Positions 1-13,898 of a stretch of 64,000 bases of DNA are shown here, one piece after another. The DNA lies in NCBI RefSeq assembly GCF_000760295.1, contig NZ_JNBA01000036.1, forward strand, positions 1 through 64,000. Direction: 5' to 3'. A program made the translations under genes and the position numbers. Each line of letters opens with the position of its first letter. Position 1 is the first letter of the stretch. The stretch is from Prochlorococcus sp. MIT 0701. GTDB taxonomy: Bacteria > Cyanobacteriota > Cyanobacteriia > PCC-6307 > Cyanobiaceae. Below the pieces are notes generated by a model that had not been told where the DNA came from, searched no databases, and saw nothing but the letters and a program-made list of their open reading frames with translations.

Positions 1-38
1 AGTTCAGTGTTGTTGTAGTCAGTGTTGAAAGTAGTCAT
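1..38 (-). CDS. 5' end of an unidentified reverse-strand gene (partial)
   Basis: An ATG on the reverse strand at 36-38 opens a frame reading MTTFNTDYNNTE, which runs off the window edge. It lies downstream of two reverse-strand terminators, as expected for a separate transcription unit. Twelve codons are too few to name a family. No strong ribosome binding site is visible, so it may also be chance. Confidence 0.3.
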   Translation of the reverse strand, partial: MTTFNTDYNNTE

Positions 39-244: not shown

Positions 245-310
245 CTAAGTATTAATTAGTGCCAGGTATTGGAGGCTGATTTGTAGGCTTTTGGGGGTGA
301 TTGAAGCAAT

Positions 311-340
311 AAAAAGCCCCTGCTAATGCAAGGGCTTTGA
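311..340 (-). terminator. intrinsic terminator of the Nif11-type precursor gene
   Basis: The inverted repeat AAAGCCC/GGGCTTT, extended by TGC/GCA around a TAAT loop, is followed by a T-rich tail on the reverse strand. It lies about 25 bases after the stop codon of the precursor gene, which fits a monocistronic transcript. Confidence 0.7.
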
Positions 341-365
341 GTGTGTAGGCTGAAGGCGGCAGTTG

Positions 366-728
366 CTAAAATAGATCTTCTGAAGAGTTATGATGGCCAG
401 GTAACCGTCTCGACGGCCTGCCATTTGGAGGACCACACACCCCCGGTTTTCCCGTCGCGATTTGTGTGAAAGGTGCCGCCCAGAGTACACAGCACAAGCC
501 CCGTTGAGAATCAGACAGCCCGCCCGGATGACCACCAGCCGCGCCTTCCAGCTCTTCTTCAGAAAGCTCTTGTTGAGCGTTCTTCAAATCGTCAGCCGAA
601 ATACTAAAACCTGCCTCTTTCGCAATCGCAAGAACTGCATCGACATCAGCAGCAGCTTTGAGCTTCTCCTGAAGGCTGGTGTCTGCTTTGACTTTTTCAA
701 GGAAGGCTTTGAGTTGCTCTTCTGACAT
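366..728 (-). CDS. Nif11-leader peptide precursor, prochlorosin-like, with an atypical C-terminus
   Basis: This 120-residue protein is probably a ribosomally made, post-translationally modified peptide precursor. Residues 1-66 form a Nif11-type leader starting MSEEQLKAFLEKVKADTSLQ and ending in ELEGAAGG, the double-glycine site cut by C39 peptidases. In Prochlorococcus such leaders direct a LanM-type synthetase (ProcM) to install lanthionine rings. The segment after GG is 54 residues, longer than most prochlorosin cores. It has Cys79, Cys80 and Cys98 and several Ser/Thr, then a basic, proline-rich tail without cysteine. The real core may end near residue 102, or the 3' end may have been altered. 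No LanM is nearby; a matching exporter lies at 7.8-13.9 kb. The leader assignment is strong; ring formation is inferred. Confidence 0.85.
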   Translation of the reverse strand: MSEEQLKAFLEKVKADTSLQEKLKAAADVDAVLAIAKEAGFSISADDLKNAQQELSEEELEGAAGGHPGGLSDSQRGLCCVLWAAPFTQIATGKPGVCGPPNGRPSRRLPGHHNSSEDLF

Positions 729-853
729 TAAGTTTGAGGTTTATTCTTTATATTTAGCAGTCAGCAGGAGACAGAGAGAAAAATCAAACAAATCTTTCAC
801 GCCATTTAACGATCGGAAGCGGGCCTCATTGTCCCCATAGCCCCTCTGCAACG

Positions 854-876
854 CACGTCTATTTCCTTGAGACGTG
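854..876. other. 7-bp inverted repeat upstream of the Nif11-type gene
   Basis: CACGTCT (854-860) and AGACGTG (870-876) form a perfect stem with a 9-base loop. No T run follows on either strand, so it is not a standard terminator. It lies about 125 bases upstream of the precursor start and could be an operator or an RNA hairpin. Its function is unknown. Confidence 0.3.
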
Positions 877-1019
877 ATCTGTTAGGGCGAGCAAGGTGCG
901 TTGAGTCGTGACCACCAGACCAAAGGATCCAATGAGCACTACGTCTTTTACAAGTGCTAACATTGCGCTAACAGAAGAAAGTGATCGCTGCAGTCTGCTG
1001 CTAGCACTAGCTTTTTACA

Positions 1020-2294
1020 TTACGTAGTGTAATCGGCGTTGATGCGCACGTATTGATCCGAAAGGTCGCAGCCCCAAGCCATGCCATCGCCCGATCCATC
1101 ACCCACAACCAAACGAATCCTCACTGTGTCATCACTTAAATAACTCCCATCAACCCGCTCTTGCATATAGCGAGATGCAACGATCCGATCAAAAGGCAAG
1201 GGTTCACCACATTCCATTAACTGGTGAGGACCCAACCAAAGGGCTACTGCTGCAGGATCAAAAGACACACCAGCACGCCCTGCAGCCGCGACGATTCGGC
1301 CCCAGTTGGGGTCACGACCATGGACGGCCGTTTTTACTAAAGAAGAGCCGCAGACAGTGCGTGCAATACGGCGGGCCTCAACATCGCGATGGGTACCATC
1401 CACTTGCACCTCGAGCAAACAGGTGGCACCTTCACCATCACGTGCGATGGCCTTGGCTAGGTGCTGAGCCACCGCCATAAGCCCAGCCTCTAATGCCTCC
1501 AGGTATTGAAGCTCTAGAGGCTCACCGGCTGCAAAGGCCAACAACGAATCATTCGTACTGGTATCCCCATCAACCGTGATCGCATTAAAGGAGCGATCAA
1601 CAACCCGCTTCACCATCGCCTGCCAAACATCTACCGAAATACCGGCATCACAACTGAGATAACCCAACATTGTTGCCATCTCGGGATGGATCATCCCTGA
1701 TCCCTTGGCCATGCCGCCAATTCGCACACGTCGACCACCTAATTCAGCTTCGAGCGCAAACTGCTTCTCAACCAAATCGGTCGTCAGGATTGCGCAGGCC
1801 GCCTCAGCACCACCCTCATCGCTGAGTGCTTCCACAAGGGGATCCAACCCTGCAAGCAAGATATCCATGGGGATAGGTACACCAATCACACCGGTTGAAC
1901 AAATCAAAACCTGCTCAACTGGTAGCTCAAGTCGGTCGGCCAGAGCCTGCGTGACTCGAACACTGTCGAGCAAGCCACGGTCACCGGTGCATGCATTGGC
2001 CTGACCAGAATTGATCAACACGGACCGTGCCTTGCCAGCACAAGCCCTCAAACGTTCCGCGCAAAGATCGACGCAGGCAGCCCGCACCAATGAAGTCGTG
2101 AACGTCCCTGTGCAAACAGCACCTTCTGGAGCCAGAAGTAACGCAAGATCCGGCTTGCCAGATTCCTTCAATCCAGCTGTGATGCCTGCCGCCTGAAAGC
2201 CGAAAGGTGCCGTTAGGCCACCAGAGATGGGGCGCCAAAGGGAGGCAAGCTCAAAGCTCACGGCCTTAGGAGACAAACTAAACACATCCTCCAC
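1020..2294 (-). CDS. argJ: ArgJ, bifunctional ornithine acetyltransferase / N-acetylglutamate synthase
   Basis: ArgJ moves the acetyl group from N-acetylornithine to glutamate in the cyclic arginine pathway; bifunctional forms also use acetyl-CoA. The 424-residue length is normal. The self-cleavage motif MIHPEMATML is present, with Thr208 expected to become the N-terminal nucleophile of the beta chain. The N-terminal WRPISGGLTAPFGFQAAGI block is typical of the family. The frame begins with GTG at 2294; GTG at 2285 is an alternative. The gene is divergent from coaE with about 7 bases between starts, so the two share a very compact promoter region or have promoters inside each other's 5' ends. 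Confidence 0.95.
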   Translation of the reverse strand: MEDVFSLSPKAVSFELASLWRPISGGLTAPFGFQAAGITAGLKESGKPDLALLLAPEGAVCTGTFTTSLVRAACVDLCAERLRACAGKARSVLINSGQANACTGDRGLLDSVRVTQALADRLELPVEQVLICSTGVIGVPIPMDILLAGLDPLVEALSDEGGAEAACAILTTDLVEKQFALEAELGGRRVRIGGMAKGSGMIHPEMATMLGYLSCDAGISVDVWQAMVKRVVDRSFNAITVDGDTSTNDSLLAFAAGEPLELQYLEALEAGLMAVAQHLAKAIARDGEGATCLLEVQVDGTHRDVEARRIARTVCGSSLVKTAVHGRDPNWGRIVAAAGRAGVSFDPAAVALWLGPHQLMECGEPLPFDRIVASRYMQERVDGSYLSDDTVRIRLVVGDGSGDGMAWGCDLSDQYVRINADYTT

Positions 2295-6773: not shown

Positions 6774-7802
6774 ATGCACAATGAAATTGTGACTGGGAAT
6801 GTCTTGCCTTTTAACATCTTTGAAAAGGCGGATTCCAAGCTACTGGCCTGGATTCGTGATGTGTCTGTCGTAAGGGAAATCACAACCTCCTGTCGTCTGA
6901 TCGAAGAAGGCAGCACTCCGGACGGCTTGTTTGTAGTGGAGTCAGGACCAATCACGGTTTGCACCAAGCAAGCTGATGGCGGAAGCTTGTCACTCGCCAG
7001 CCTAAAAGCAGGCAACCTGGTGGGAGAGATGAGCTGGCTGGAAGAACGTCCAGCAGTAGCAAGCGTCGATGCTGGTCCAGGAAGTCGTCTTCTCCAAATC
7101 CCTAGAGCGGCTCTGGAGTCAATCAATCAATCCGAGGATTCCATTTGCCATCTCCTCTATCGCGTCATCGCTGAAAAATTGGCCCTCCAAGTGCAAGGCC
7201 AAAACGCATGGGTTCATCGTATTGCCGCGACTGACCAGGAACCCCTCCGCAAAGTTCTGGTGCTATTCGCAGAACTCGAAGAAAAGGATGTGGCCTGGAT
7301 CGCCAGATCCGGTAAATTCAAACGTCTTATGGCCGGAGATATTCTCCTTGAAGAGGGAGATAATGTGCCTGGTCTCTATCTGCTGCTCTCTGGAGAGGCC
7401 AGAATAAGTATCACTAAAAACGGAAGCTGGCAATCGGTAGGCAGCTCTCGACGCGGTGAACTACTCGGTGAGCTCACAATGCTCAACCCTCAAGCAGCCG
7501 GAGCCACCGCCAATGTGGACACACTCACAGGCCTAGAGCTACTGGTGCTCGACAAACAGGAACTCAGCATGACTCTCAACGCAAATCCAAGGCTGGCTAA
7601 GCGTTTCTACAAAGGCATCGCACGCATGCTCTCCCAACGCAGCCGTGATCAACTCCTCAGCCGTGGATTTGCTGAAGCAAGCCGCATGGCCGAGGAAATC
7701 ATCGACAACGAACAGCTTGGGCTTGATCAACTCTCGGCCATCAGTTCAGCCGGGTTGCGTTTTGACTGGCTGTGCAGACAGTTTCAGGATAAGGAGGGCT
7801 GA
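6774..7802 (+). CDS. protein with two cyclic-nucleotide-binding-fold domains, first gene of the exporter operon
   Basis: The 342-residue soluble protein carries two cNMP-binding-fold domains (about residues 10-125 and 155-265) and a helical tail. Both have the glycine-rich LxxGxxxGE turn (GNLVGEMSWL and GELLGELTML). However, the arginine that normally binds the cyclic phosphate (PRxAS/T) is missing in both, where the sequence reads RPAVAS and PQAAGAT. Binding of cAMP is therefore doubtful, and a structural or other-ligand role is possible. The stop codon lies 4 bases before the start of the next gene, and the ribosome binding site of that gene lies within its last codons. Co-transcription with the NHLM-type exporter is thus very likely. 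In this context it may control or scaffold the transporter; that is inference. Confidence 0.85.
   Translation: MHNEIVTGNVLPFNIFEKADSKLLAWIRDVSVVREITTSCRLIEEGSTPDGLFVVESGPITVCTKQADGGSLSLASLKAGNLVGEMSWLEERPAVASVDAGPGSRLLQIPRAALESINQSEDSICHLLYRVIAEKLALQVQGQNAWVHRIAATDQEPLRKVLVLFAELEEKDVAWIARSGKFKRLMAGDILLEEGDNVPGLYLLLSGEARISITKNGSWQSVGSSRRGELLGELTMLNPQAAGATANVDTLTGLELLVLDKQELSMTLNANPRLAKRFYKGIARMLSQRSRDQLLSRGFAEASRMAEEIIDNEQLGLDQLSAISSAGLRFDWLCRQFQDKEG
7791..7798 (+). promoter_or_regulatory. strong Shine-Dalgarno that fixes a TTG start
   Basis: AAGGAGGG lies 8 bases before TTG at 7807, while the open frame itself extends back to 7645 inside the previous gene. The site decides in favour of the TTG start and indicates translational coupling to the upstream stop codon at 7800-7802. 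Confidence 0.8.
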
Positions 7803-7806
7803 TGTC

Positions 7807-10557
7807 TTGAAACTGCTTCCCGGTGAAGAGCAACCATGGCCCTCTAATCCTTTGAGGGTTACTGAGGGAGAGATAAGACTGATCCTTGAGCAACGCTCTA
7901 AGGAAGGATCCCTTCGCTCAAGACTTGGCCTGCTAAGCCTGAAAGAAGGCGCAATCCTGCCTGGTTTACCTGTCGATGGTCTCAATAGCACAAGCCACCT
8001 TCGCATCAAAGCCATCACCACCAGTGTGTTGACGTCGCTGAACAGCTCAGATCCAGAACAACAAGAAGGGCTGGACATTCTGCAAGCATTGCTATGGGAG
8101 AAACTTAGCCATCGTCCTGAGACAACAAACGCCAGCGAAGCTGCTATCGCACAGCTTCTGGAAGCCCACCATCAACAAGCCTGGGAGCAACACCACTTAA
8201 GACAACACAGTCATGAGCCCCTGAGCCAACAGAGCGAAGAACATCTATTCCGCAGTCTTGAGGCAGCAGGTCAAGCCAGCCAGACCCAGCAACCGCCGCC
8301 CCTACAAGACACTGTTCGTCAAGATCCTCTTCTGGCCTGCGTCGCGACCCTGGCCCAGCAAGGCTCAACATCAGCGAAGGCACCAATTCAAAACACGCCT
8401 GACCCTCGATCACGGCTACTGCTGATTCTGGAATCGGCAGGTTTAATCGGACGGGAGGTGCTGCTCAACGACAACCTGCTGGAAAAAGATTGCGGGGACC
8501 TCATCGGCTTCCTCGAACAGACGCCTACAAGCCCAGTTGTGCTTCATTCCACTGCCAACGGCTATCGCGTCTGGGCTCCCGAGCGAATGACAAAGCCGAT
8601 ACCACTCTCCCAAGCCAGCCAACTACTTGAAGAACTAAATCCAAGGGTGATGGCCATCAGCCCCAAATTCCAAACCAAGGATCTAACCACCTTGGGGCTT
8701 TTGCGTTTTGCCTATGGAGAACCAACCAATCTCTCCAGATTTGTGATCAGTGGTCTGCTCTTGGGAATCACCTTAGGTTTCTTACTTGCCATTGGCCGAG
8801 ACGTCGGAGCTGCTCGCTGGATCTTCGGGATGGGGCTCACCGGATTGGCAGCTGGGGCATGCCTTGGACTACTCAGCGGCGGCTTCCGTATCGGAGTAGG
8901 CGTGATGTTTTTGGCAACTCTTCTGAGCTTGCTGACCCCCACGTTCAACACCGTGATTACAAACTCGGCTTTGCCGGACAGAGACCTTCTTCTATTGCTG
9001 CAAATAGGCCTAATTCTTATCGCTGCTGGTATCACACGAGTGGCATTGGAATGGATCCAAAGCCGATCTTTCCAAATCACCCAACAAAAAGGGGGAGCAA
9101 AGTTCCAGCTGGCCAGTATTAAACACTTACTAAGCCTGCCGACGGATTTCTTCCGTAAATACAACATCGGCGACCTTCAACTCCGCTTTAATGCAATCGA
9201 GCAATTGCGCAGTCAAATCCAAAACCTCTTGGAAGGGGGCCTGGTCAAGGTAGTGCTCACCAGTATTTATGTGCTGTTCATGTTGAGGATCAGCGTCAAG
9301 TTGACATTGCTGGCGCTAGTAATCTCCATGATGGTGCTTCTACCCACAGCATTGATCGGTCTGCAAACTCGCCCTCTGAAACGCCAACAGGAGGAGATCG
9401 AAGGACAAGCCCAAAGTCGCAATCTTGAGCTCATCAGCTCCGTCTCCAAGCTGCGTCTAGCAGGAGCTGAAGCTGCGGCCGCCCGCTGGTGGGGAGAACA
9501 GTTCCAACGCGTCGTGGTTCTAGAAAATGCTCTGGATATCAAAGAAGCAACCGCCGAAATCCTGCAGGGTGTGATGCCAAACCTTGGCAACCTGCTGCTT
9601 TACATCGTGATCACAAAACTGATCGCTGATGCCGCGACGACCCCTGCACTCAATGCACCCAACGCTGGCCAGTTACTTGGGTTTTTCTCAGCCTTCGGAA
9701 CATTTGTGGGAGGCATGGCCAGCTTCGCTGGGCTTGCAGTGGAAGCCTTCGATATGCCTGTCCTCTATGAACGAGCAAAGCCTTTCCTGACAGCCACACC
9801 AGAAGTCATCGATGCAGCGATAGAACCAGCCGAGCTGCGTGGAGCCATCAAACTCGACCGAGTGAGTTATCGCTATGCCCCAGATCTACCACTCATTCTA
9901 GATAACGTGAGCCTGAAAGCAAACCCAGGGGAATTCATCGCTCTGGTGGGTCCTTCAGGATCAGGCAAATCAACAATCGTGCGCATGCTGCTGGGATTTG
10001 GCACGCCTGAAAACGGAGAAATCAGTTATGACGATCAGCCACTTAATGGCTTACGCATCGACAGCTTGCGGCGTCAAATTGGCACAGTGCTACAAAGAAA
10101 TAGTTTATTCAGCGGCAGTCTGATGGAGGCTATCGCCGGAGGATGCCTGATCAATCAAGAGGAGGCCTGGGCTGCTGCTGAGATGGCAGGCCTGGCAGAC
10201 GACATCCGCGAAATGCCAATGGGACTACAAACCATTGTTTCTGAGGGAGGGGGGACCCTCTCTGGTGGTCAACGCCAACGAATTGCCATCGCCCGAGCCT
10301 TGGTGCGGCAACCGCGAATTCTGATCTTTGATGAAGCCACAAGCGCCCTCGACAATCACACACAGGGAATTGTGATTCGCAGTCTTGAAACACTAAGCAT
10401 CACACGTTTGGTCATCGCCCATCGACTGAGCACAATTCGCCACGCCGATCGCATCATTGTGCTAGAGAAAGGTCAAGTGCAGCAACAAGGCACATTCGAA
10501 AGTCTGATGAATGAAGCTGGGCTATTTGCCCGCTTAATGGAGAGGCAAGTTTCATGA
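7807..10557 (+). CDS. NHLM-type peptide export ABC transporter, permease/ATPase without peptidase
   Basis: This 916-residue protein fits the NHLM system ATP-binding/permease family. A soluble N-terminal region of about 300 residues precedes a membrane domain of roughly six helices (about 311-640). A full ABC ATPase domain follows: Walker A GPSGSGKST at 715-723, signature LSGGQRQR from 818, and Walker B ILIFDEATSALD near 838. It lacks a C39 domain; the partner at 11.7 kb has one. The two exporters and the HlyD-like adaptor are the three-part set known from nitrile-hydratase-leader and Nif11-leader peptide clusters. The start is TTG at 7807, chosen for its ribosome binding site. Its stop overlaps the next start by 4 bases. 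The cargo is probably Nif11-leader peptides such as the one at 0.4-0.7 kb. Confidence 0.92.
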   Translation: MKLLPGEEQPWPSNPLRVTEGEIRLILEQRSKEGSLRSRLGLLSLKEGAILPGLPVDGLNSTSHLRIKAITTSVLTSLNSSDPEQQEGLDILQALLWEKLSHRPETTNASEAAIAQLLEAHHQQAWEQHHLRQHSHEPLSQQSEEHLFRSLEAAGQASQTQQPPPLQDTVRQDPLLACVATLAQQGSTSAKAPIQNTPDPRSRLLLILESAGLIGREVLLNDNLLEKDCGDLIGFLEQTPTSPVVLHSTANGYRVWAPERMTKPIPLSQASQLLEELNPRVMAISPKFQTKDLTTLGLLRFAYGEPTNLSRFVISGLLLGITLGFLLAIGRDVGAARWIFGMGLTGLAAGACLGLLSGGFRIGVGVMFLATLLSLLTPTFNTVITNSALPDRDLLLLLQIGLILIAAGITRVALEWIQSRSFQITQQKGGAKFQLASIKHLLSLPTDFFRKYNIGDLQLRFNAIEQLRSQIQNLLEGGLVKVVLTSIYVLFMLRISVKLTLLALVISMMVLLPTALIGLQTRPLKRQQEEIEGQAQSRNLELISSVSKLRLAGAEAAAARWWGEQFQRVVVLENALDIKEATAEILQGVMPNLGNLLLYIVITKLIADAATTPALNAPNAGQLLGFFSAFGTFVGGMASFAGLAVEAFDMPVLYERAKPFLTATPEVIDAAIEPAELRGAIKLDRVSYRYAPDLPLILDNVSLKANPGEFIALVGPSGSGKSTIVRMLLGFGTPENGEISYDDQPLNGLRIDSLRRQIGTVLQRNSLFSGSLMEAIAGGCLINQEEAWAAAEMAGLADDIREMPMGLQTIVSEGGGTLSGGQRQRIAIARALVRQPRILIFDEATSALDNHTQGIVIRSLETLSITRLVIAHRLSTIRHADRIIVLEKGQVQQQGTFESLMNEAGLFARLMERQVS

Positions 10558-11672
10558 GCCTGTTTCGCAAAAATGCGCTGGATGCCTTAGCGAGTCCTGA
10601 ACAGCTAGACCAACCTATTGAATTACTTAGGCCTAGCTACTGGCTTTTAATAATCTCACTGTTGGGATTCAGTCTCAGCATTGTGCTGTGGTCGATCTTT
10701 GGCCGATTACCGGTAAGAATTGAAGGACGAGGGATATTGATCAGATCAGAAAGCTTACAACTGGTTCAAAGCGAAATTGACGGACGAGTTCAAGAGCTAA
10801 AAAGCAATGTGGGTGACTGCATCAAGCAAGAAACAACCCTTGCAGTCATTGAACCAGTGAAATTAAAACTAGCGAAAGAGAAAGCCGAAAAAGAGCTAAG
10901 ACTTCAGATCGTCAATGATAAAAAATTAGGTCTGATAGCGATTCAAAGAGAAAATGAAGCCAAGAAAACTCTCACACGCTATAAGTTTTATAAAGAAGCT
11001 GTCAGTCTTAAAGAGTTGGAAACAAAAGAACAACAATTCTCTGAACTGTTGTTCAGCCTAGAAAACAGTGATGCTCAACGTGAACAAGTCATCAATCAAA
11101 AACGCAGCGAGATTGTTTCTTTAGAGAAAGAAATCGCACAAACCGCTGCCGTGAAAGCGCCTCGTGCAGGCTGCATCACAGACCGCCATGTGCAATTAGG
11201 ACAATTGGTGCAGCGAGGCGCCACGCTATTTGAGCTGGAACAAGACAAAGACAGCCATACACTTGAAAGCTTGGCCTTCTTCCCCGCCAAAGATGGTAAA
11301 CGCCTGCGCATAGGTCAACCAGTACGCGTAACACCAACAACAACCAGCCCACAACGCCATGGTGGTATCGAAGCTGAAATCCTTAGCGTGCGTCGTTTGC
11401 CAGTCAGCAAAGAAGCCGTCATCAACCGCCTCTACAACAAAGAGTCGCTATATAAAGCCATCACGAGCAAAGACGAAGGTCCATTAATCGAAGTCACCAC
11501 GTCCTTAACTAAAGACCCAACAACACCAAGCGGCTATGACTGGGGCGGCAGCAAAGGGCCGGACCTACAGCTCACAGCAGGCACACCAACAACGCTGCGA
11601 GTGCTTGTAGAGCAAAGGCAGCCAATCAGCTATGTGATCCCTCTATTGAGAAATCTCAGTGGGATCTACTGA
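10554..11672 (+). CDS. HlyD-family adaptor (NHLM-type secretion protein)
   Basis: This 372-residue membrane-fusion protein should bridge the inner-membrane ABC exporters and the outer membrane. One transmembrane helix (about residues 29-50) follows a short cytoplasmic N-terminus. A beta/lipoyl-like half (SEIDGRVQELKSNVGD), a coiled coil rich in Lys/Glu/Leu (about 95-195) and the second lipoyl-like half (VKAPRAGCITDRHVQLGQLV) follow. The order matches HlyD proteins of NHLM clusters, at a normal length. ATGA overlap with the upstream ATPase shows translational coupling. The next gene starts 12 bases after its stop. Confidence 0.92.
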   Translation: MSLFRKNALDALASPEQLDQPIELLRPSYWLLIISLLGFSLSIVLWSIFGRLPVRIEGRGILIRSESLQLVQSEIDGRVQELKSNVGDCIKQETTLAVIEPVKLKLAKEKAEKELRLQIVNDKKLGLIAIQRENEAKKTLTRYKFYKEAVSLKELETKEQQFSELLFSLENSDAQREQVINQKRSEIVSLEKEIAQTAAVKAPRAGCITDRHVQLGQLVQRGATLFELEQDKDSHTLESLAFFPAKDGKRLRIGQPVRVTPTTTSPQRHGGIEAEILSVRRLPVSKEAVINRLYNKESLYKAITSKDEGPLIEVTTSLTKDPTTPSGYDWGGSKGPDLQLTAGTPTTLRVLVEQRQPISYVIPLLRNLSGIY

Positions 11673-11684
11673 GGGAGACAAGAC

Positions 11685-13898
11685 ATGAACCTGCAGTCTT
11701 TCTGCCGTCAACTCTGGATCCGCATCCAAGCTCGTCTCAGCAAGCAGTGGGTACGTACCCCAACATTGCTGCAATTGGAAAACACGGAATGTGGGGCAGC
11801 CTCCCTGAGCATCATCCTCCAGTACTACGGCCGTTATGTACCGCTGACCCAACTGCGCGAACTTTGCGGCGTCTCACGCGACGGCAGTGATGCGGCCAAT
11901 TTATTACTTGCAGCGAAAAGCTTAGGGCTCAAAGCAAAAGGATTCAAAAAAGGATTGCTGGCTTTAGAACAAATCCAGCCACCAGTCATCGTGTTTTGGG
12001 AATTCAACCATTTCCTCATCCTCGAAGGTTTCATTGGTGATCGGGTGGCCCTCAATGATCCAGCTCTCGGTCCTCGAACTGTCAGTCGCGAAGAGTTCGA
12101 TACCAGTTACACCGGCATCGTCCTAACGCTGGAGCCAGGCCCAAACTTTCAAAAAGGCGGAAAGGCACCATCAGTCTGGCCAGTGATTTGGCGGCGCTTA
12201 AGCCTTGAACCCAAAGGAGCCCTATTCATTCTGCTAGCTGGTCTCCTGCTGATCCTGCCCCAGCTGGTGATGCCGATCTTTGCCCAGATCTATATGGATG
12301 AGATTATCGGCAATCAAATCCAAACGTGGTTAAAGCCAATGTTGTGGGGAATGGCCCTCACCATCAGCCTGCAAGTGGTGCTGCAGCATCTTCAGCTCAT
12401 CGGAACACGCGCCCTGGAGAGGCGACTAACCCGACGCTTTGCCGCACAATTTGAACACCAGGTTCTGGCCTTACCAGAGCGTTATTACGCCCAACGCTAT
12501 GCATCAGATGTAGCCAGCAGGGTTTCTAGTAATGCTCGAATTGCTGAATTCATCGGCGGAGAACTGATCCCGATGCTCACCGGCATTGTTCTGCTGGTGT
12601 TTTATCTGATATTGACTTTGCTCTACAGCCCAATTCTAGGACTGATAGTAGGCGTCACTACTGGCATCAACGCCCTCGTTGTAGCCATCAACCTTCGAGT
12701 ACAACAAGACTCTAGTCAACAGCTCCAAAAAGATGGGGCCAAAGCTGGCGCAGTCGTGGTAGGTGCCCTGCAAGATATCGACACCGTAAAAGCAGCAGCC
12801 GTAGAAAACGACATCTTCAGACGCTACGCGGGTTACCAGAGCCGACTACTCAACACTGTGCAAAAGCTCCAACTTCTCAACGCACGGATCAGGGTGATCC
12901 CCAGCGTCATGACTACCTTTAACGAGGTGGCAATTTTGTTGGTTGGATTTTTCCTGGTGATTCAAGGTCAGCTCACTCTAGGAATGCTCCTAGCAGCCCA
13001 AACCATTGCCAGCAACTTAAAAGCTAAAATCGAAAGCGTGATTGGCTTCGTGCAAAACCTGCCCGACTTGGAAGCTGAAGTACTCCGCCTGGAAGATGTT
13101 CTTGAACAACCTCGAGACCCATTACTGATAGACGCACCAAAAATTCAGGACTGGAATGGCGACAGGGAACGCCTATCAGGCGCCATCGAAATTCAAGACC
13201 TCTACTTCGGCTATATGCCACTTAAACCACCTCTCATCAATGGACTACGTCTATCTATCCAACACGGCCAAAGGATTGCTTTTGTCGGAGGCAGTGGCTC
13301 TGGGAAAAGCACAATCGCCAAACTGCTTGCAGGTCTCTATCAACCTTCCTCAGGACAAATCCTCTACGACGGTATTCCGCTAAACGAAATACCACGAGCC
13401 ATCAGCATCAGTTCACTTGCGATGGTTCAACAAGATGTACAACTCTATGGATGCAATGTTCGTGAGAACCTCAATCTCTGGAATAACAGCCTTCCAGACA
13501 AAGACCTTAGGCAGGCCTGCGCAGATGCCCAAATTCTCGACACCGTTCTCGGCCTGCCTGATGGCTTTGAAACCGTACTTAGCGAAGGAGGTCGCAACCT
13601 TTCAGGCGGTCAACGACAACGGCTCGACATTGCTCGTGCCCTGGTTCAAAACCCCAGCATCCTGATCCTCGATGAAGCCACCTCAGCACTCGATAGCGAA
13701 ACAGAACGATTAGTGGACGAGGCCTTCCGACGCCGTGGCTGCACACAAATCATCGTGGCGCACCGCCTCAGCACAATCCGTGATGCTGACCTCATCTTGG
13801 TCCTAGAGCGTGGTCAAGTGGTCCAACAAGGTCGCCATGAAGACATGGCGACCGTCACTAATTCTCCCTACCAGAAGCTCTTGGCGGAAGTGGCCTAA
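11685..13898 (+). CDS. C39 peptidase / ABC exporter (LanT/NHLM type)
   Basis: This 737-residue protein should cut precursor leaders after a double glycine and export the C-terminal part. The N-terminal C39 domain has the full triad, Cys36 (NTECGAAS), His109 (FNHFLIL) and Asp125 (NDPALG). A six-helix ABC membrane domain follows (about 175-460). The ATPase domain has Walker A GGSGSGKST at 535-543, signature LSGGQRQR and Walker B ILILDEATSALD. The intact triad and its pairing with a peptidase-less exporter and HlyD match the NHLM set. In Prochlorococcus MIT9313 a LanT/ProcT protein of this kind processes prochlorosins, and this is the likely counterpart. It is the last gene of the operon; the convergent cyclase gene follows after 25 bases. 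Confidence 0.94.
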   Translation: MNLQSFCRQLWIRIQARLSKQWVRTPTLLQLENTECGAASLSIILQYYGRYVPLTQLRELCGVSRDGSDAANLLLAAKSLGLKAKGFKKGLLALEQIQPPVIVFWEFNHFLILEGFIGDRVALNDPALGPRTVSREEFDTSYTGIVLTLEPGPNFQKGGKAPSVWPVIWRRLSLEPKGALFILLAGLLLILPQLVMPIFAQIYMDEIIGNQIQTWLKPMLWGMALTISLQVVLQHLQLIGTRALERRLTRRFAAQFEHQVLALPERYYAQRYASDVASRVSSNARIAEFIGGELIPMLTGIVLLVFYLILTLLYSPILGLIVGVTTGINALVVAINLRVQQDSSQQLQKDGAKAGAVVVGALQDIDTVKAAAVENDIFRRYAGYQSRLLNTVQKLQLLNARIRVIPSVMTTFNEVAILLVGFFLVIQGQLTLGMLLAAQTIASNLKAKIESVIGFVQNLPDLEAEVLRLEDVLEQPRDPLLIDAPKIQDWNGDRERLSGAIEIQDLYFGYMPLKPPLINGLRLSIQHGQRIAFVGGSGSGKSTIAKLLAGLYQPSSGQILYDGIPLNEIPRAISISSLAMVQQDVQLYGCNVRENLNLWNNSLPDKDLRQACADAQILDTVLGLPDGFETVLSEGGRNLSGGQRQRLDIARALVQNPSILILDEATSALDSETERLVDEAFRRRGCTQIIVAHRLSTIRDADLILVLERGQVVQQGRHEDMATVTNSPYQKLLAEVA

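What the first reader, a model, noticed from the sequence alone, without database searches (positions are those of the whole stretch)
366..728. Prochlorosin-like precursor with an over-long, Pro/Arg-tailed C-terminus
The Nif11 leader with GAAGG end is clear in the sequence. The part after GG has 54 residues, Cys79/Cys80/Cys98 and a basic, proline-rich tail without Cys, unlike the shorter cores usual for prochlorosins. It could be a new core type, a fused tail removed after export, or a 3' frameshift product. Adjacent cysteines (CC) are also unusual for ring formation.
Basis: partly seen in the sequence, partly recalled or inferred. Interest (0 to 1): 0.7.

Follow-up and report, generated by a model that had tools for sequence, protein, structure and literature searches.

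The report
Long-core prochlorosin precursor gene
This is a real gene for a prochlorosin-type ring-forming peptide in the ocean cyanobacterium Prochlorococcus MIT0701; its active part is unusually long but typical for this strain, which as a whole has longer and more cysteine-poor versions than the well-studied strain MIT9313.

Summary
In detail: minus-strand ORF 728-366 encodes 120 aa, a textbook Nif11/ProcA leader ending in GAAGG and 54 residues after it, with Cys79, Cys80 and Cys98. The genome matches Prochlorococcus MIT0701 (LLIV) by size and contig count. The gene is downstream of argJ, in the slot held by a 93-aa procA in MIT9313. The 5' flank is 91% identical; the core is unrelated. The leader is under purifying selection (dN/dS 0.07-0.22) and an intact ProcM is present. 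The stop lies 20 nt before a conserved procA 3' module, normal spacing, which argues against a lost stop codon. CC is not unusual: 7 of 18 MIT9313 cores have it. The length is normal for this strain: 13 MIT0701 cores have median 46 residues, 18 MIT9313 cores median 21 (P = 1e-4). The basic, Cys-poor tails have the composition of unselected reading frames of the same DNA, so there is no evidence that the tail is a designed part. I file it as a new member of the prochlorosin precursors, probably a substrate of ProcM and a C39 exporter, with a core enlarged by replacement. More interesting is the strain-wide pattern, which coincides with absence of a transporter operon that MIT9313 and AG-412-I05 have.

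The parts
366..728 (-). procA-type precursor gene (120 aa)
   Evidence: ORF; TIGR03798 8e-27
531..728 (-). Nif11/ProcA leader, residues 1-66, ending LEGAAGG (C39 cleavage expected after GG)
   Evidence: dN/dS 0.07-0.22
369..530 (-). core region, residues 67-120, 54 aa; no DNA relative found
489..494 (-). Cys79-Cys80 codons
   Evidence: direct reading
435..437 (-). Cys98 codon
   Evidence: direct reading
369..434 (-). Cys-free Pro/Arg tail, residues 99-120 (GPPNGRPSRRLPGHHNSSEDLF)
   Evidence: direct reading; composition of MIT0701 tails tested
258..349 (-). conserved procA 3' module, 20 nt after the start of the stop codon: terminator plus about 50 nt ending in ATACCTGGC
   Evidence: nhmmer E 1.4e-23, though the window copy was one of 12 seeds; independent DNA match 97% to another MIT0701 procA, C5
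313..338 (-). intrinsic terminator inside the module, 11-pair stem
1020..2294 (-). ArgJ homologue (named from general knowledge of the family), conserved upstream neighbour that fixes the synteny with MIT9313
   Evidence: 87% identity, same order
7645..10557 (+). NHLM_micro_ABC2-like export ABC protein (best model TIGR03797, below its cut-off)
10554..11672 (+). NHLM HlyD-type secretion protein (TIGR03794, above cut-off)
11685..13898 (+). NHLM C39 peptidase/ABC exporter (TIGR03796, above cut-off); candidate for leader removal and export

Best explanation
A working prochlorosin precursor gene whose core has been replaced by unrelated, longer DNA between a conserved leader and a conserved 3' module. 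Shown by sequence: Nif11 leader, GG site, purifying selection on the leader, intact ProcM elsewhere in the genome, canonical stop-to-module spacing, unrelated core in the same chromosomal slot of MIT9313. Inferred: ProcM binds the leader, dehydrates Ser/Thr of the core and closes up to three rings on Cys79, Cys80 and Cys98 (donors N-terminal to them: Ser72, Ser74, Thr88, Thr92); a C39 exporter, in this genome most likely the NHLM system 7-13 kb away, cuts after GG and releases a peptide of up to 54 residues with a ring-bearing head and a linear 22-residue tail. The tail is probably just part of a core that is not under tight length selection in this strain.
For: Leader family and score; leader dN/dS 0.07-0.22; intact LanM of 1082 aa with CHG and CCG motifs, TIGR03897 E 1e-243, dN/dS 0.19 against MIT9313 ProcM, as for ArgJ 0.17; argJ-procA synteny with 91% identical 5' flank and an unrelated core; stop 20 nt before the 3' module, where 39 of 46 genes with a module have 5-80 nt; 9 of 13 cores in this genome have 44 or more residues, so the gene fits its strain; C39 NHLM exporter in the same window.
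Against: Pooled MIT0701 cores show no significant Cys enrichment over their other reading frames (5.1% against 3.8%, P 0.21), whereas MIT9313 cores do (12.2% against 3.3%, P 9e-9). So selection on the core chemistry is not shown here. No expression or product data. Which exporter, if any, handles it is inference.
Confidence: 0.6

Rival explanations
1. The core is unselected run-on sequence: the leader is still conserved, but cores in MIT0701 have drifted under weak selection, and the Pro/Arg tail is simply what translated local DNA looks like.
For: Tail Arg+Lys 17.1% equals the other frames of the same DNA 16.4% (P 0.82), tail Cys 2.9% against 2.9%; no significant Cys enrichment in MIT0701 cores; MIT0701 lacks a transporter operon that stands next to procM in AG-412-I05.
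Against: Pooled core length is longer than random stops give (mean 44.8 against 20.9 expected, P 7.6e-4); ProcM and the leader remain under purifying selection; stop-to-module spacing is canonical.
Confidence: 0.27
2. Lost stop codon or 3' frameshift: an original core of about 25 residues now runs on into former 3' untranslated DNA.
For: The MIT9313 gene in the same slot ends at residue 93; an ancestral core of about 22 plus a random extension of about 21 codons would give the observed mean of about 45 (inference).
Against: The stop is 20 nt before the 3' module, as in the MIT9313 counterpart (24 nt); if the core had ended near residue 94 the stop would have been about 100 nt before the module, beyond most genes. 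No residual DNA similarity to the MIT9313 core. Other frames give no known core.
Confidence: 0.1
3. A bipartite precursor: ring-forming head plus a basic linear tail with a job of its own (transport, targeting, later trimming), shared by the MIT0701 precursors.
For: In the long MIT0701 cores Cys lies towards the start (P 0.036) and Arg/Lys towards the end (P 0.0007); the Arg/Lys gradient is absent in the other frames.
Against: Tests were made after seeing the pattern and on about ten genes; tails share no sequence motif that I could see; the tail's basicity does not exceed the other frames of the same DNA.
Confidence: 0.08

Closest known systems
Prochlorosin precursors (ProcA) of Prochlorococcus MIT9313, modified by ProcM
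   Same: Leader up to 87-88% identical, GG site, Cys/Ser/Thr core, 3' module, argJ-linked slot, ProcM present with CCG motif
   Different: Core 54 residues instead of 15-32; the MIT0701 set as a whole is Cys-poor
Nif11-like leader RiPP precursors (TIGR03798, N11P)
   Same: Leader matches the model over its full length
   Different: No difference at family level
Long SyncA cores in Synechococcus (EAC657, A18-25c) mentioned in PMC10783134
   Same: Long cores within the same precursor family have been reported
   Different: Those stand in YcaO-containing clusters (the paper's description; supplementary sequences not read)

Membership tests
Nif11-like leader RiPP precursor (TIGR03798) | Leader above the curated score cut-off | tested here: met
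   93.3 bits against 32.3, residues 1-66
Nif11-like leader RiPP precursor (TIGR03798) | Double-glycine C39 cleavage site at the leader end | tested here: met
   ELEGAAGG, direct reading
Prochlorosin (ProcA) | ProcM-like LanM synthetase in the genome | tested here: met
   C7:4336-7584, TIGR03897, CCG motif, dN/dS 0.19
Prochlorosin (ProcA) | Core with Cys and Ser/Thr able to form lanthionines | tested here: met
   3 Cys, 7 Ser/Thr, 4 of them N-terminal to a Cys
Prochlorosin (ProcA) | Core length in the range of the MIT9313 members (15-32 aa); a typical value, not a defining requirement | tested here: not met
   54 aa; two cores of AG-412-I05 have 48 and 51
Prochlorosin (ProcA) | Selection for Cys in the core | tested here: inconclusive
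   MIT0701 pooled P 0.21; a single gene cannot be tested
Prochlorosin (ProcA) | Dehydration and ring formation by ProcM | not testable with these tools
   Needs co-expression and mass spectrometry

The most novel reading that the evidence does not exclude
MIT0701 has a strain-wide shift to long prochlorosin cores with a ring-bearing, Cys-containing head and a linear basic tail, linked to having lost the C39/HlyD/ABC operon that accompanies procM in a relative and to depending on the NHLM exporter instead, so that exporter identity sets core length.
Probability: 0.15. Interest if true: 0.6.

Novelty: new member of a known kind. Interest (0 to 1): 0.35.

Why it matters
As a single gene it adds one more member to a hypervariable family. 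The comparison it led to is more useful. In MIT9313 the core reading frame is strongly enriched in Cys; in MIT0701, with ProcM equally conserved, it is not, and cores are twice as long. If confirmed in MIT0702, MIT0703 and MIT9303, this gives a natural contrast for asking what limits core length (synthetase, exporter or function) and whether all procA genes in a genome make useful products.

Tried and rejected
Core captured from another gene: DNA searches of 40 relatives and of the phage collection found nothing. A tblastn match of residues 77-119 to an out-of-frame stretch of a GIY-YIG-like gene (G000 C29:83471-83602, E 7e-4) looked striking at the protein level (shuffle z about 15), but the DNA is 50% identical with third positions at 26%, DNA alignment is within shuffles, and the other sequence is read out of frame with a stop: taken as a chance match. 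Hairpin in the tail DNA: fold energy z +0.9, nothing special. Rfam: only AbsR28 far below its threshold. Pfam on the core and its other frames: nothing above a cut-off. Codon usage as a test of the core frame: uninformative, since the MIT9313 cores also fail it. A search for papers naming ProcT found none, so I do not name the MIT9313 transporter ProcT.

Full report
WHAT WAS CHECKED. The ORF lies on the minus strand, 728 to 366, 120 aa: leader MSEEQLKAFLEKVKADTSLQEKLKAAADVDAVLAIAKEAGFSISADDLKNAQQELSEEELEGAAGG, core HPGGLSDSQRGLCCVLWAAPFTQIATGKPGVCGPPNGRPSRRLPGHHNSSEDLF. It is the best Nif11 match of its genome and matches TIGR03798 at 8e-27. By the same table the relative G003 (2,410,873 bases) is MIT9313. 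G002 shares contig lengths with Prochlorococcus sp. AG-412-I05.

LOCUS. In MIT9313, argJ (2245240-2246511) is followed on the same strand by a procA of 93 aa at 2244945-2244664. Window 655-1100, which covers the argJ end, the intergenic stretch and the first 25 codons of the leader, is 91% identical to that place. The rest of the leader is closer to other MIT9313 procA leaders (87-88%). The core has no DNA similarity to the MIT9313 core. The region after the stop again matches procA 3' regions: 77% to the MIT9313 counterpart and 97% to another MIT0701 procA on contig C5. AG-412-I05 has no procA behind argJ within the 500 bases available. So the gene occupies the same slot with a different core. 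Exchange between conserved flanks would produce this arrangement; that step is inference.

END OF THE GENE. I built a profile of the 3' module (terminator plus about 50 bases, ending ATACCTGGC) from 12 procA genes and searched behind 64 Nif11 precursor ORFs. Of the genes with a module, 39 of 46 have the stop 5-80 bases before it, median 34; here it is 20, in the MIT9313 counterpart 24. Between GG and the module lie 181 bases here and 107 in the counterpart. The extra length lies inside the gene and does not come from reading past a normal end. The terminator is also found by the consensus scan at 338-313.

LENGTH AND COMPOSITION. Thirteen MIT0701 cores have 14-67 residues, median 46; eighteen MIT9313 cores 15-32, median 21 (Mann-Whitney P 1.1e-4). 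The sum of the MIT0701 lengths exceeds what random stops would give (P 7.6e-4). Cys: MIT9313 12.2% in frame against 3.3% in the two other frames (P 9e-9); MIT0701 5.1% against 3.8% (P 0.21). In the first 30 residues MIT0701 has 6.4% Cys against 4.2% (P 0.14), after residue 30 2.9% against 2.9%; Arg+Lys after residue 30 is 17.1% against 16.4% in the other frames (P 0.82). Cys tends to the start and Arg/Lys to the end of the long cores (P 0.036 and 0.0007), but these tests were made after seeing the sequences and on few genes. The Pro/Arg tail is therefore what unselected DNA of this region would encode, and nothing shows that it is a module. CC occurs in 7 of 18 MIT9313 cores and in 1 of 13 MIT0701 cores.

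MACHINERY. The genome has one LanM (C7:4336-7584, 1082 aa), dN/dS 0.19 against MIT9313 ProcM, about the same as for ArgJ (0.17), with the CCG motif. The leader's dN/dS is 0.07-0.22. The window carries an NHLM-type export system at 7645-13898, also present in MIT9313 near its argJ-linked procA cluster; Haft et al. 2010 (PMC2887384) tied an ABC export system to nitrile-hydratase-like leader peptides and described Nif11 precursors as a parallel family. A second C39/HlyD/ABC operon, 92% identical (C39 protein) between MIT9313 (1056 kb) and AG-412-I05 and lying tail to tail with procM in AG-412-I05, has no orthologue in MIT0701: best match 36%, the NHLM protein itself. A gap in the draft assembly cannot be excluded, although the assembly is rated 99.98% complete.

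MECHANISM. Most likely ProcM uses the leader to dehydrate and cyclise the core, with up to three rings on Cys79, Cys80 and Cys98, and a C39 exporter removes the leader. ProcM tolerates large fusions in engineered substrates according to a review (PMC12328550), so the tail need not block modification. Every enzymatic step here is inferred from homology. From my own knowledge, unread here: Cubillos-Ruiz et al. 2017 reported that prochlorosin cores diversify through large, indel-based changes, which this case fits.

VERDICT. The gene is an ordinary member of its strain's set, and an unusual one only beside MIT9313 and Synechococcus. The point worth a follow-up is the strain-wide difference in core length and Cys content.

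Noticed in passing
window 1-38, minus strand: Start of a second type of double-glycine peptide (MTTFNTDYNNTEL...), cut by the contig end; fuller copies are at L130 238-468 and in L006.
   Followed up: partly
window 258-349 and 3' ends of procA genes in many loci: A 92-base 3' module (terminator plus conserved downstream stretch) follows procA-type genes in Prochlorococcus, Synechococcus and Cyanobium. Its end motif TACCTGGCAC occurs 21 times in this genome against 2 for the reversed control, in part far from any procA found here.
   Followed up: partly
G003 C1:1053485-1053639 (L156 3486-3640): MIT9313 carries a 155-base copy (87%) of the 3' end of procM next to its 1056-kb C39/HlyD/ABC operon, as if procM once stood there as it does in AG-412-I05.
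   Followed up: partly
L050 (G002 C7:83683): An AG-412-I05 precursor whose core holds a tandem duplication (RPKRDETAGPLTFACTD twice); its MIT0701 relative (L005) has an unrelated 67-residue core.
   Followed up: no
L012 (G000 C23:40812-41183): A precursor ORF with two Nif11 domains in tandem, GG site and a Cys-free core.
   Followed up: no
L158 (G002 C56): AG-412-I05 has a second, very different LanM-type protein (about 27% identity to ProcM).
   Followed up: no
L163 1560-2482 and many further places in G000: A multi-copy family with a conserved signal-peptide-like start and a coiled-coil stretch, looking like an outer-membrane porin family.
   Followed up: no
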